This document shows positions 28,373-32,748 of a DNA stretch of 40,484 nucleotides, piece after piece. Numbering within the stretch: position 1 is the stretch's first letter; each line of letters begins with the position of its first letter. A program made the position numbers and the translations under genes. Source of the DNA: a virus; the IMG/VR virus record IMGVR_UViG_3300036820_000331, positions 1 through 40,484 of that record. One strand, 5' to 3'. Below the pieces are notes generated by a model that was not told where the DNA came from, did not search any database, and saw only the letters and a program-made list of their open reading frames with translations.

Positions 28373-28962
28373 ACGGCCCGATCGGCTGGCCGCCCCTGCG
28401 CCACCGCCCCCGGCCACCGCGAGGCCGCCACCGCGCCCTTGAAACCGTCCCGGAGTCCGACATGCCACCCATCCCAGCCCCGCCGCAGCACAGCACCGCA
28501 CCACAGCCATCCCTGCCCCCGCCGCCAGTCCCGGCCGAGCCCGAGAAGACCGTCCAGTGCGGATGGTGCAAAGTCATGGGCCCGCTGTCGCAGATCCCCG
28601 GCAGCGGCGGGTGGTACCGGTGCGCCAAGCTCTGGGAGTGCATCCCGCGGCAGCTGGCCGGTGGCCTGCCCGCACCGCTGTCCCCGGCAGGCACGCCGCC
28701 GCTGGAGCCTCTTCCCGTCGCTGAGCCTGAACCCCCCGTAGTCCTGCCACCCGCACAAGAGGCAGCGATGGAGCGGTTCAACGAGGCCACCGACGCACAG
28801 GACGCAGCCGAAGGCAAAGACCGCAGCAAGGACGGGGTGACGCCTGAGGCAGACGCGGAGGCTCCCGCAGACACCACGGAACCCGCTCCCGTCGCTGCCG
28901 AAGACGCGGCTGAGGCTGCCGCGCCGACTGCTGAGACCCTGGACGGCGGCGAGGGCGAGTGA
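28369..28962 (+). CDS. Pro/Ala-rich protein with Cys motif, upstream of exonuclease
   Basis: ATG 28369 (ATGA) gives 197 residues. The N-terminal ~60 residues are Pro-rich; residues ~62-90 hold CGWCKVMG and GGWYRCAKLWEC, a possible zinc site; the last ~70 are acidic and Ala-rich, disordered in character. It could be a scaffold or ssDNA-linked partner of the recombination proteins, but no family is recognised. Confidence 0.55.
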   Translation: MNGPIGWPPLRHRPRPPRGRHRALETVPESDMPPIPAPPQHSTAPQPSLPPPPVPAEPEKTVQCGWCKVMGPLSQIPGSGGWYRCAKLWECIPRQLAGGLPAPLSPAGTPPLEPLPVAEPEPPVVLPPAQEAAMERFNEATDAQDAAEGKDRSKDGVTPEADAEAPADTTEPAPVAAEDAAEAAAPTAETLDGGEGE

Positions 28963-30014
28963 ACGGCGTCCTGATTCCGACCGCCAGCGAGGCCGAGTGG
29001 CAGCACGCCCGCCGCAAGGGCGTGACCGCCAGCGAAATAGCCGTGGTGATGGGCCTGTCGCCCTACGACTCGCCTTTCTCTCTGTATCACCGCAAGCTCG
29101 GCAACCTGCCTGACCAGGAAGACAGCATGGCCCTGGCCATCGGCCGCCACTTCGAGGACTTCGTCGCCGGCCGGTTTGCCGAGCAGCACGCCGAGTTCCA
29201 CGTCAGTGGCGATGGCCGCGCGCTGTACGCACACCCGTACCGGCTCTGGCAGCTGGCAACCCCGGACCGGATCGTCAACGATGTCCGCCTCGACTTCCTT
29301 AACGGCGTCGACGATGCGTTCGAGGAGTACGAGCCGTACGCAGTGCTGGAGTGCAAGACCGACGGCGGGTTCGACGGCTGGGGCGACGACGGCACCGACG
29401 AAATCCCCGTCCACTACCGCTGCCAGGTGCTGTGGCAGATGGACGTCATGGGCGTGCAGGCCGCGTTCGTGGCCTGCCTGTTCATGAACCGGCGGCAGCT
29501 GCGCGTTTACCCGATCACGCTGGACGACGCGGCGCACGCCGACCTGAAGCTGATGCGCGAGGAAGCCGAGACGTTCCTCGGCCGCCTCCGCGAGGGCACC
29601 GAGCCCGGCGTCGACTGGCGCCCGGCCACCCGCCAGGCGCTCAACCAGCTGCACCCGGAGCTTGAGGACCGCGAGGTCATCATCCCGCGGCACCTCGGCG
29701 TGGCTTACCAGGCCGCCGTGCGCCGGCACGAGCTGGCCGAGCGGCGCAAGGACGAACTGGCCAGCCGGGTGCTGGCCGAGGTCGGCGACGGCCGGTACGC
29801 GATCGAGGCGGAGACCGGCCGCAAGGTCGCCACCCGCTCGGTCAGCAAGCCCAAGCGCATCGACACGAAGAAGTTGCGCGCCGAGCACCCCGATATCGCC
29901 GCGGCGTGCACCAGGTCCCCGAAGCCCGAAGTCCGGCTGATCCCCGCGAGGCACGCAAGCACCGCCCGGGTGATCCGCCCCGCCCTGACAGCAGCATCCA
30001 AGGAGCAGTCATGA
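28959..30014 (+). CDS. YqaJ-family (lambda-exonuclease-like) viral recombinase nuclease
   Basis: GTG 28959 gives 351 residues. The domain signatures are visible: GVTASEIAVVMGLSPYDSPFSLY (21-43), E66 in HFEDF, D103 in TPDRI, E131-x-K133 in LECKT and Q156. These form the metal site of YqaJ/RecE-type 5'-3' exonucleases, which resect double-strand ends to give 3' overhangs for an annealing protein. recT lies next to it, split off only by an IS. The C-terminal ~100 residues are basic and helical. It would act in phage recombination. Confidence 0.85.
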   Translation: MNGVLIPTASEAEWQHARRKGVTASEIAVVMGLSPYDSPFSLYHRKLGNLPDQEDSMALAIGRHFEDFVAGRFAEQHAEFHVSGDGRALYAHPYRLWQLATPDRIVNDVRLDFLNGVDDAFEEYEPYAVLECKTDGGFDGWGDDGTDEIPVHYRCQVLWQMDVMGVQAAFVACLFMNRRQLRVYPITLDDAAHADLKLMREEAETFLGRLREGTEPGVDWRPATRQALNQLHPELEDREVIIPRHLGVAYQAAVRRHELAERRKDELASRVLAEVGDGRYAIEAETGRKVATRSVSKPKRIDTKKLRAEHPDIAAACTRSPKPEVRLIPARHASTARVIRPALTAASKEQS

Positions 30015-30031
30015 CACTCCCTATGTCAACC

Positions 30032-31285
30032 TCAGGCCGCGGTTTGCTTCGCTGGCTGTGCGGCGAGGGCGGCGGCGGCTCCGTGCTGGGCGGGGTCGTA
30101 GGGGACGCCGTCGAGCCAGCAGCGGTAGATGACGCGGACCCAGGCGCGGGCCAGGATGCGGGTGGCGTGTGGGTGGTCCTTGCCGGCAGCGCGGGCGTTG
30201 TCGTAGATCTGGGCGGCCCAGGGGCTGGCGTGGCGGCTGTTGTCGGCGAAGGTGGTGATGGCGACGCGGAACCGCTTGTTGCAGGCCCACCGGAAGTGGA
30301 CGGAGCGGTGCTTGCCGGATTCCTTGGTGACCGGGGTGACGCCGGCGAGGGCGGCGACGGAGTCGGGGTGCTCGTAGGCTGGTCGGCAATCGCCCCACTC
30401 GGCGAGCACCTGGGCGGCGTTGACCTGACCCGACCTTGGCAGCGACGTGAAGATCGCCCCGTCCGGGTGCTCTCCGAGGTGGGCGGCGACGGACCGGTCG
30501 AGGTTCTTCACCGACGCGTTGAGTGCCTGCAGGACGGCGACGGCGGCGAGCACGGCGTCGCGCAGGGCTTCGCTGAGCGATTCCAGGCCGGTGCCGGCCG
30601 GGGCGGCGCGCAGCCGGGCGAGCAGCTCGGCGGCGGTGCGGCGGCCGGAGTAGCCGTGCTTGAGGCAGAACGCGGCCATCCGCTTCTCGCCGAGGTGGAC
30701 GGCGGCGGCCGGGGTCGGGTAGCGGGTCAGGAACTCCAGGCTGATCGGCGACTCGACGTCGGCGAAGATGGCCCTGGCGCCGGGCCAGTGCGCGTCCAGC
30801 AGCGCCGACAGCTGATTGGTCGCCGCCACCCGCATCTCGACGATGTCGCCGCGGGTCCGCACGACGGTGCGCAGGGCCAGGGTCTGGTCGGAGTACGGCT
30901 CGGCGACCCGCAGCTGGCCGGCCCGCACCCGCAGGTAGTCGGCGATGAACGCGGCGTCGGCGGTGTCGGACTTGGCGCCCGACGGTACCTCGCCCTCGCG
31001 CCAGGTCTTGATCGCGTTCGGCTTGACCGGCACGACCGGGTGCCCTGCCTCCAGCAGCAGGTCCACCAGGCGGCCGTCCGGCCGCTCGATCGCGACCGGC
31101 ATGTCGCCGGCCGGGCCGAAGCGGGCCAGCCGGCGCAGCAGCGCGGCGATCCCGTCAGCGGAATGCTCGATGGTGAACTGGGCGGTGATCTTCCCGGCCG
31201 CATCCAGCACGCACACGGCATGGGCCTCGGCGGCCCAGTCGATCCCGGTGAAGAACAGCGCATCAGGCAGCGCAAACGCCGGCAT
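30032..31285 (-). CDS. IS110-family DEDD transposase/recombinase
   Basis: ATG 31285 with AAGGAG about five bases upstream gives 417 residues; a longer frame upstream lacks support. The N-terminal RuvC-like part has FTGIDWAAEAHAV (first Asp), an ERPDG segment and KSDTADAAFIADYLR (last acidic pair), the usual DEDD tetrad layout. The C-terminal Transposase_20-type domain has SLPRSGQVNAAQVLAEWGD and SVAALAGVTPVTKESGKHRSVHFRWACNKR, containing the Ser region that carries the nucleophile in this family. It inserts by RNA-guided strand exchange in studied relatives. Confidence 0.9.
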   Translation of the reverse strand: MPAFALPDALFFTGIDWAAEAHAVCVLDAAGKITAQFTIEHSADGIAALLRRLARFGPAGDMPVAIERPDGRLVDLLLEAGHPVVPVKPNAIKTWREGEVPSGAKSDTADAAFIADYLRVRAGQLRVAEPYSDQTLALRTVVRTRGDIVEMRVAATNQLSALLDAHWPGARAIFADVESPISLEFLTRYPTPAAAVHLGEKRMAAFCLKHGYSGRRTAAELLARLRAAPAGTGLESLSEALRDAVLAAVAVLQALNASVKNLDRSVAAHLGEHPDGAIFTSLPRSGQVNAAQVLAEWGDCRPAYEHPDSVAALAGVTPVTKESGKHRSVHFRWACNKRFRVAITTFADNSRHASPWAAQIYDNARAAGKDHPHATRILARAWVRVIYRCWLDGVPYDPAQHGAAAALAAQPAKQTAA

Positions 31286-31440
31286 GAAAGCTCCTTGCGA
31301 TGGCAGCGACGACCCGGCGAGGAGGACAGCTACCGGGTGGTCACTAACCGGCGCTCTGCGGCGCGTCTCCCTGTTGCCAGTCCGTGTCCCCGGAAGGGCC
31401 GGGGGCGGTGGTGTCATGCTGGCCGTTTTCCGGCTACCGC
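31286..31440 (-). ncRNA. Candidate bridge RNA region of the IS110 element
   Basis: The non-coding end upstream of the transposase can form a hairpin on the minus strand: GCCAG/CTGGC (31376-31380 and 31419-31423) around an inner stem CCCCGG/CCGGGG (31388-31393 and 31399-31404). The internal loop between them holds GTGTCATG (31411-31418), the exact reverse complement of CATGACAC at the left insertion flank (30010-30017). It also holds AGTCCGT (31379-31385), which matches AGACCGT on the right flank (31444-31450) at six of seven bases. This is what a target-binding loop would show. Full folding was not computed. Confidence 0.6.
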
Positions 31441-31518
31441 ACTAGACCGTCACCCCGGCCCCCGCCGAGTCCCAACAACGAGCACCGTAACGGTGCCCGC
31501 ACTAAGGATGGTGCCCTA

Positions 31519-32748
31519 GTGACCGCCCAGACCGTTTCCCAGGCCGTCGAGAAGCGCGACAGCGGGCCCGTCGCGATCATGTGGACCCGCAAGCGCCACT
31601 TCGATGCCGTGCTGCCCGGGTCGGTGGACGTTGAGGCGTTCCTCGGCACGGCCGCCGGCGCCCTGTACGCGTCGGACGTGCCGGGCAAGAAGCTCACGCT
31701 GATGGGCTGCGCGCAGGCCAACCCCGACAGTCTGATCGTCTCGCTGATGGAATGCGCGGCGCTCGGCCACATGCCCGGCACCGACGAGTACTACCTGACC
31801 CCCCGCATGGACCACGGCCGGCCGAAAGTCCTCGGCATCGAGGGCTACCGCGGCGTGATCGAGCGCATGTACCGCTCCGGCGCGGTCGCGAAGGTCGTCG
31901 TCCGCGAGGTGTGCGAGCGCGACTACTTCGACTACCGCGAGGGCGAGATGGACATCCCTGTCCACCGGTTCGCCCAGGGCACCACCGGGGCCGCGTTCTT
32001 CTCCTCCGCCCAGTCCCGCGGGCAGATGGTCGGCGGCTACTCCTACGCCCAGCTCACCAACGGCTCGTTCTCCCGTGTCGTCATCCTCACCCGCGACGAC
32101 ATCTTCGCTGCGCGCGACTCCGGCGGCTACAAGCCCGACGACAGCTTCAGCCCGTGGAACCGTCTCGATGGCGGCGCGGAGCACCCCGAGTTCACGGGCC
32201 GGAGCATGTGGTGGAAGACACTCGCCAAGCGGCTCGAGCCGTGGGTGCCGACCAGCCGCGAGTACCGGCGCGAGCAGTTGCGCGCATCGGCCGCCGCAGC
32301 CGAGCAGGCGCGCCCGCGGGCCGGGCTGGGCAGCCTTCCCGACGCCCCGGCTCTGCCCAGCGGCCACAGCGACATCGTTGAGGCAGAGATTGTGGAGCAC
32401 CCGGCCGTGGCCGCCCAGGCCGGGCAGGCGCCCGCTGAGACCTCGGCGTCGGCTACCGAGCAGGGAACCCCGGACGGCTCGCCGGCGAGCCCCGGGCCGG
32501 CTGCATCCGGTATAGCGACCGGGAGGCTGGAGCAGCTCCTCCAGGAGGTCCCGCTGGGGACTGCGGCCGACCGCGCCGAGTTCATCGCCTGGGTGACCGG
32601 GCATCCGGCCGATGAGGAACTCACCCCGGCCGATGTCAAGAAGCTGACCGCGCGGCTGGACGGCGCGCTCAAGGCGGTCAAGGGCAACGGCGAGCAGGCC
32701 GCCTCGGCGCTGTGGGAGCAGCACAAGCAGGCCACGGGCGCCAAGTGA
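31519..32748 (+). CDS. recT: RecT-family single-strand annealing protein
   Basis: GTG 31519 has AAGGA at 31504-31508 and a small GCACCG-TAA-CGGTGC hairpin (31482-31496) before it; the product is 409 residues. The core (about 1-250) shows the RecT pattern: LTLMGCAQANPDSLIVSLMECAALGHMPG, YYLTPRMDHGRPKVLGIEGYRGVIERMYRSG, VCERDYFDY and SMWWKTLAKRLEPWVP. The C-terminal ~150 residues are a disordered Ala/Pro/Glu-rich tail, then a helical end. RecT coats single strands and pairs complementary DNA after YqaJ resection. The upstream coupling with the exonuclease is now broken by the IS. Confidence 0.9.
   Translation: MTAQTVSQAVEKRDSGPVAIMWTRKRHFDAVLPGSVDVEAFLGTAAGALYASDVPGKKLTLMGCAQANPDSLIVSLMECAALGHMPGTDEYYLTPRMDHGRPKVLGIEGYRGVIERMYRSGAVAKVVVREVCERDYFDYREGEMDIPVHRFAQGTTGAAFFSSAQSRGQMVGGYSYAQLTNGSFSRVVILTRDDIFAARDSGGYKPDDSFSPWNRLDGGAEHPEFTGRSMWWKTLAKRLEPWVPTSREYRREQLRASAAAAEQARPRAGLGSLPDAPALPSGHSDIVEAEIVEHPAVAAQAGQAPAETSASATEQGTPDGSPASPGPAASGIATGRLEQLLQEVPLGTAADRAEFIAWVTGHPADEELTPADVKKLTARLDGALKAVKGNGEQAASALWEQHKQATGAK

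What the first reader, a model, noticed from the sequence alone, without database searches (positions are those of the whole stretch)
30010..31450. IS110 leader carries two guide-like segments matching both sides of its own insertion
Seen directly: GTGTCATG (31411-31418) is the exact reverse complement of CATGACAC at the left flank (30010-30017). AGTCCGT (31379-31385) matches AGACCGT at the right flank (31444-31450) in six of seven bases. Both lie on the two sides of an internal loop in one predicted hairpin, in the non-coding end upstream of the transposase. Established knowledge: IS110 recombinases such as IS621 use a bridge RNA whose target-binding loop pairs with both target halves. Here both guides can be read against the target itself. 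The order of guides relative to transposase direction differs from my memory of IS621 and needs checking.
Basis: partly seen in the sequence, partly recalled or inferred. Interest (0 to 1): 0.82.

Follow-up and report, generated by a model that had tools for sequence, protein, structure and literature searches.

The report
Jumping gene that rebuilds start codons
This is a small RNA-guided jumping gene of the IS110 family that has landed exactly in the start codon of a phage recombination gene and carries its own replacement start signal plus a stop-free backward reading path, so the gene it interrupts can apparently still be read.

Summary
A phage contig without the element (L095; 0 differences in 160 bp across the joined flanks) shows that the insertion is 1,508 bp (30016-31523, one TGAC shared with the target). 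AGACCGT (31444-31450) is therefore inside the element.

The left noncoding end does encode an IS110-type bridge RNA. In about 30 homologues at different targets the fold covaries (30 of 46 pairs with compensatory changes). All four guides covary with their partners (z about 6-9), in IS621 order LTG-RTG-LDG-RDG. Its second guide (AGTCCGT) is a donor-loop stem strand with no relation to targets.

Unexpectedly, the guides address translation starts: RBS-(A/G)TG-ACC. The element inserts antisense into the start codon, and its left end supplies a new Shine-Dalgarno and GTG. An antisense ORF (30011-31519) runs from the native ATG through the whole element to a stop overlapping the new start. It is kept open through the bridge-RNA region in 28 of 31 homologues, and the transposase avoids codons that would close it, while its amino-acid sequence is barely conserved. 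I propose a translation-preserving IS110 clade; IS900 and its hed ORF are the precedent.

The parts
30016..31523 (-). IS110-family element, 1508 bp (equally 30012-31519; TGAC at 30012-30015 and 31520-31523 is shared by target and donor)
   Evidence: Empty site in L095 identical to the joined flanks, 0/160 differences; ends conserved in homologues
30032..31285 (-). DEDD transposase/recombinase, 417 aa; D16, E67, D107, D110 and S323 invariant in 21 homologues
   Evidence: Pfam PF01548 5.6e-35 and PF02371 1.5e-14; PDB relatives ISCro4 and IS621; invariant residues
30012..30031 (-). right end: left-donor half ATAGGGAGTGTCA plus -35-like TTGACA
   Evidence: conserved after the transposase stop in nearly all homologues
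31478..31500 (-). bridge RNA 5' stem-loop
   Evidence: 9 pairs, 7 with changes on both sides
31392..31466 (-). bridge RNA target-binding stem-loop
   Evidence: 18 pairs, 98.1% of cells paired, 11 with compensatory changes, plus apical hairpin
31435..31443 (-). left target guide (LTG) AGTGCGGTA, 6/9 identical to own left target TGGGCGGTC
   Evidence: LTG-LT covariation z=7.9, only at slide 0
31413..31419 (-). right target guide (RTG) GCATGAC, pairs GTCATG of the target; its outermost base is mismatched in this copy
   Evidence: RTG-RT covariation z=7.9
31322..31391 (-). bridge RNA donor-binding stem-loop
   Evidence: helices 4-6, 10 of 15 pairs with compensatory changes
31367..31374 (-). left donor guide (LDG) ACAGGGAG
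   Evidence: LDG-LD covariation z=8.7
31339..31347 (-). right donor guide (RDG) TTAGTGACC
   Evidence: RDG-RD covariation z=6.4; e.g. TTAATGACC with GGTCATTAG in L007
31504..31521 (+). replacement translation start supplied by the element: AAGGAT...CTAGTG
   Evidence: anti-SD duplex mean -12.3 kcal/mol at this place in 31 homologues versus -4.5 elsewhere in the same region
30011..31519 (+). antisense (hed-like) ORF, 502 aa, from the native ATG through the whole element to TAG overlapping the new GTG
   Evidence: frame open through the bridge-RNA region in 28/31 homologues; codons that would close it absent from 28 of 29 transposases
30000..30013 (+). native RBS AAGGAG and native ATG of the interrupted gene, overlapping the YqaJ stop (ATGA)
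31519..32748 (+). interrupted host gene: RecT-family protein, now starting at GTG, 409 aa
   Evidence: Pfam PF03837 3.1e-20; 99% identical to intact L095 gene
28959..30014 (+). upstream gene: YqaJ-like exonuclease
   Evidence: Pfam PF09588 2e-20

Best explanation
The feature is an IS110-group insertion element on the minus strand. Its leader encodes a bridge RNA with a 5' stem-loop, a target-binding loop (LTG 31435-31443, RTG 31413-31419) and a donor-binding loop (LDG 31367-31374, RDG 31339-31347). The target loop is programmed for translation starts of the form RBS-(A/G)TG-ACC, read on the antisense strand. Shown by sequence: insertion at that point without loss of target bases, structure and guide covariation, target class, a rebuilt start (SD-like sequence plus GTG overlapping a stop), and an antisense reading frame kept open through bridge RNA and transposase. 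Inferred: ribosomes that start at the native ATG translate through the element in antisense, stop at TAG and restart at the overlapping GTG. The interrupted gene stays translated and transcriptional polarity is avoided, so insertions into expressed genes are tolerated. The antisense product need not be a functional protein.
For: Empty site with 0/160 differences. Consensus fold: 96.1% of cells paired, 30/46 pairs with compensatory change, 0/500 shuffles, slid controls about 40-53% paired. Guide covariation z 7.9, 7.9, 8.7 and 6.4; for LTG and RTG lost on sliding. Outward ORFs of 100 aa or more from the rebuilt start in 28/35 loci; SD-like motif before the native start in 34/47 versus 21% background. 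Rebuilt start has strong anti-SD pairing. Antisense frame open in 28/31 leader regions, against 5/31 or fewer for the other five frames. Leader lengths of 215-293 are all 2 mod 3 except two copies in one MAG. TCA 0 and CTA 0 in 28 transposases versus 5.2% and 2.0% in host genes, p about 2e-6 each; TTA is absent from both sets, while other NNA codons are used normally. Low conservation of antisense residues: fourfold third-base identity 0.54 versus 0.47 random; no third-position excess of variation in the leader.
Against: No expression data. This copy's own LTG matches its target in only 6 of 9 positions and its RTG has one mismatch. A few homologues have a broken antisense frame; at least one (L009) has an intact transposase. 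The core dinucleotide (GT, TC or CA within GTCA) is not resolved. Fourfold-site identity is slightly above random, so weak protein-level selection on the antisense ORF is not excluded. Homologues share ancestry, so permutation and Fisher values overstate independence.
Confidence: 0.8

Rival explanations
1. The antisense ORF encodes a functional protein (as proposed for IS900 hed): the element targets translation starts in order to get its own second gene expressed, and preservation of the host gene is incidental.
For: IS900 has an antisense ORF spanning the whole element without its own RBS or start, and targets translation initiation signals (PMC8141618, citing Doran et al. 1997). The frame is kept open here.
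Against: Antisense residues are hardly conserved beyond what the transposase imposes and there is no third-position excess in the leader. No Pfam match. The element also supplies an RBS and a start codon overlapping the ORF's stop, which a gene-expression-only model does not need.
Confidence: 0.2
2. Ordinary IS110 with a bridge RNA. Start-codon targeting is an accident of one ancestral guide, and the open antisense frame is a by-product of high GC and codon bias.
For: High-GC codon-aligned antisense frames are often open; the members are related.
Against: Host genes in the same loci use TCA and CTA, the transposases do not. Frame kept across indels in noncoding sequence. The sister group with ATGAGC targets shows the same stop/start overlap and RBS. 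RBS conserved at the left end.
Confidence: 0.12
3. One reading: guides CATGACAC and AGTCCGT on the two sides of one loop, matching both flanks of a 30018-31443 insertion.
For: CATGAC is a true guide.
Against: Empty site; AGTCCGT does not covary with targets and lies in the donor-loop stem.
Confidence: 0.01

Closest known systems
IS621 (IS110 group, bridge RNA; Durrant et al. 2024 PMC11208160; structure PMC11208158)
   Same: DEDD plus serine recombinase, long left end with bridge RNA, 5' stem-loop plus target and donor loops, guide order LTG-RTG-LDG-RDG, LTG of about 9 nt
   Different: Recombinase only distantly related (phmmer 8.3e-08 over the C-terminal part); target is a start codon; left end carries RBS and start; antisense ORF preserved
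IS900 of Mycobacterium avium subsp. paratuberculosis (PMC8141618; Doran et al. 1997, title only seen)
   Same: IS110 family, targets translation initiation signals, antisense hed ORF spanning the whole element without its own RBS or start
   Different: IS900 target motif is CATGNNNNNNTCTCCTT; here the junction is inside the start codon, (A/G)TGACC. Whether IS900 rebuilds the gene's RBS and start was not checked; the IS900 sequence was not found in the held genomes
seekRNA of IS1111/IS110 elements (PMC11187229)
   Same: RNA from the noncoding region sets the target
   Different: No start-codon targeting or antisense-ORF feature found in that text

Membership tests
IS110 family | DEDD_Tnp_IS110 plus Transposase_20 domains | tested here: met
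   both above the curated cut-off
IS110 family | DEDD residues and catalytic serine | tested here: met
   D16, E67, D107, D110 and S323 invariant; spacing and ESG motif as in IS621/ISCro4 (residue roles from PMC11208158)
IS110 group with bridge RNA (IS621-like) | long left end, short right end | tested here: met
   238 nt versus about 20 nt
IS110 group with bridge RNA (IS621-like) | conserved RNA fold with 5' stem-loop, target loop and donor loop | tested here: met
IS110 group with bridge RNA (IS621-like) | guides covary with target and donor in order LTG, RTG, LDG, RDG | tested here: met
IS110 group with bridge RNA (IS621-like) | RNA transcribed from RE-LE junction promoter in the circle and bound by the recombinase | not testable with these tools
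   only a -35-like TTGACA is conserved in the right end
IS900-like (hed) elements | antisense ORF across the whole element lacking its own start | tested here: met
IS900-like (hed) elements | target CATGN6TCTCCTT with insertion between start codon and RBS | tested here: not met
   junction is within the start codon, target GGTCATG; motif from PMC8141618; insertion point of IS900 from my memory
IS1111 group | bridge RNA in the right end, subterminal inverted repeats | tested here: not met
   RNA is in the left end; right end only about 20 nt; subterminal repeats not searched for

The most novel reading that the evidence does not exclude
A clade of IS110 elements (Actinobacteria, with relatives in Proteobacteria) has evolved RNA-guided insertion into start codons together with layered coding: bridge RNA on one strand, and on the other strand a sequence-indifferent open frame that ferries ribosomes across the element and hands them to a rebuilt RBS/start. 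These would be mobile elements adapted not to silence the gene they hit.
Probability: 0.6. Interest if true: 0.78.

Novelty: new variant of a known kind. Interest (0 to 1): 0.64.

Why it matters
It gives a concrete, testable answer to how an insertion element can repeatedly hit the most sensitive point of a gene, its start codon, without killing it. It also suggests that the old IS900 hed ORF may be a ribosome path rather than a gene. For bridge-RNA biology it is a natural guide set whose targets are defined by function (translation starts), and a leader in which guide RNA and antisense reading frame constrain each other. For tool builders it suggests insertions that keep downstream expression.

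Tried and rejected
Sense-frame extension of the transposase as the reason for the mod-3 leader lengths: rejected, the sense frame is open in only 5/31. A functional antisense protein: not supported. Rfam: no match in the window. Search for IS900 by a primer sequence recalled from memory in 248 genomes of the genus: no match, so no direct sequence comparison. A 35%-identity element with many copies in one Mycobacterium genome (L108-L114) was looked at for the same ends and does not show them. My first RTG permutation was off by one base and was corrected.

Full report
Observation. The four strings are present at the stated coordinates. The window is a 40,484-bp virus record. The transposase (30032-31285, minus) has both IS110 Pfam domains, and its only PDB relatives by sequence are ISCro4 and IS621. 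Homologues from 52 genome and 2 viral loci let me place the ends. A direct test settled it. A scan for the predicted empty site found L066/L095, a phage contig whose RecT is 99% identical to the window's, and the joined flanks equal L095 in 160 of 160 bases. The insertion is 1,508 bp with TGAC shared by target and donor. AGACCGT (31444-31450) is inside the element.

Bridge RNA. The leader alignment folds into a 5' stem-loop, a target-binding stem-loop and a donor-binding stem-loop. On that structure 96.1% of cells pair, 30 of 46 pairs have compensatory changes, none of 500 shuffles reaches this on any measure, and sliding the partner by one base drops pairing to about 52%. Guides were extracted by column and compared with each element's own flanks or ends: LTG with left target 3.23/5 versus 1.95 permuted (z 7.9), RTG with right target 2.82/3 versus 1.74 (z 7.9), LDG with left donor 6.55/7 versus 4.90 (z 8.7), RDG with right donor 5.97/6 versus 5.44 (z 6.4). 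One sequence per distinct leader gives z 7.3, 6.9, 7.3 and 6.1. For LTG and RTG, where slid registers were tested, none reproduces the signal. Examples: L007 has right target GTCACAG with RTG CTGTGAC, and left end GGTCATTA with RDG TAATGACC; L032 has GTCACGGG with CCCGTGAC. Order is LTG, RTG, LDG, RDG, as in IS621 (order in IS621 from my reading of PMC11208160 and memory of its sequence; strand pairing rules). This copy's own LTG is only a 6/9 match, so the window alone would not have proved the case; the family does.

What is targeted. In the empty site the junction lies in AAGGAG-CAGTC-ATG-ACC, the RBS and start codon of a RecT gene (Pfam PF03837) whose start overlaps the stop of a YqaJ exonuclease. 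In 28 of 35 homologous loci an ORF of at least 100 aa runs outward from the left-end (G/A)TGACC. SD-like motifs lie before the native start at the right end in 34 of 47 versus 21% background. In this reading the element is antisense to the gene it interrupts.

Rebuilt start and antisense frame. The left end supplies a start codon (GTG, once ATG) and an SD-like sequence (mean anti-SD energy -12.3 versus -4.5 kcal/mol elsewhere). In the window the gene now starts at 31519. From the native ATG (30011) an antisense ORF crosses the whole element and ends in TAG overlapping that GTG. It is not explained by chance. In the leader this one frame is open in 28 of 31 distinct sequences, while each of the other five is open in at most 5. 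Leader lengths are congruent mod 3 except in two copies of one MAG. In 28 of 29 transposases TCA, CTA and TTA (which read as antisense stops) number zero, whereas interrupted host genes use TCA in 5.2% of TCN-serines and CTA in 2.0% of CTN-leucines, and other NNA codons are used about equally (Fisher p about 2e-6 each). TTA is absent from the host genes too, so it carries no weight. The antisense amino acids are not much conserved: fourfold third bases are identical at 0.54 versus 0.47 random at 50-66% transposase identity, and leader variation is not concentrated at antisense third positions. The simplest reading is that an open path for ribosomes is selected, not a protein. That ribosomes actually pass and restart is inference.

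Spread. A sister group at about 43-50% transposase identity (Streptomyces, Embleya, Variovorax plasmids) shows the same design with ATGAGC targets: RBS, TAATG or TTATGA stop/start overlap, and no antisense stops. L101 at 36% does not.

Known or new. RNA guidance is known (PMC11208160, PMC11187229). An antisense ORF and targeting of translation signals are known for IS900 (PMC8141618). I found no report, in the open-access library searched, of start-codon-directed bridge guides, of the rebuilt RBS/start overlapping the antisense stop, or of codon-level evidence that the antisense frame is preserved. Subscription papers, including the 1997 IS900 paper, could not be read, so priority is uncertain.

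Limits. Everything is comparative sequence evidence; expression, recombination and coupling were not measured. Core position within GTCA is unresolved. Related sequences inflate the permutation and Fisher statistics.

Noticed in passing
L098, L100, L102, L104, L106: Sister IS110 group targets ATGAGC instead of ATGACC and rebuilds the start with AAGGATGGTCCTCTAATGAGC (or TTATGAGC with GGAGG in Variovorax).
   Followed up: partly
L100, L102, L104, L106 upstream flanks: The outward ORFs in four sister-group loci are all 214-217 aa although annotated differently; possibly related genes or recurrent targets.
   Followed up: no
window 28959-32748: YqaJ exonuclease and RecT pair, natively overlapping by ATGA; the element sits between them and keeps both overlaps (ATGA and TAGTG).
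   Followed up: yes
window 30024-30029 (minus strand): TTGACA in the right end is conserved and could be a -35 box across the circle's junction; no clear -10 was seen in the left end.
   Followed up: no
L009 right end: 14-bp tandem duplication GGTTGACATAGGGA in the right end, together with GCGACC in place of GTGACC and a broken antisense frame: probably a decaying copy.
   Followed up: no
G001 (L108-L114): A different IS110 element (35% identity to this one) is present in about 17 copies in one Mycobacterium genome; its ends differ.
   Followed up: partly
L105: A 33%-identity Rhodococcus IS110 also has no antisense stops in its transposase and an antisense frame open 354 nt upstream; may be another start-targeting branch or an IS900-like element.
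   Followed up: no
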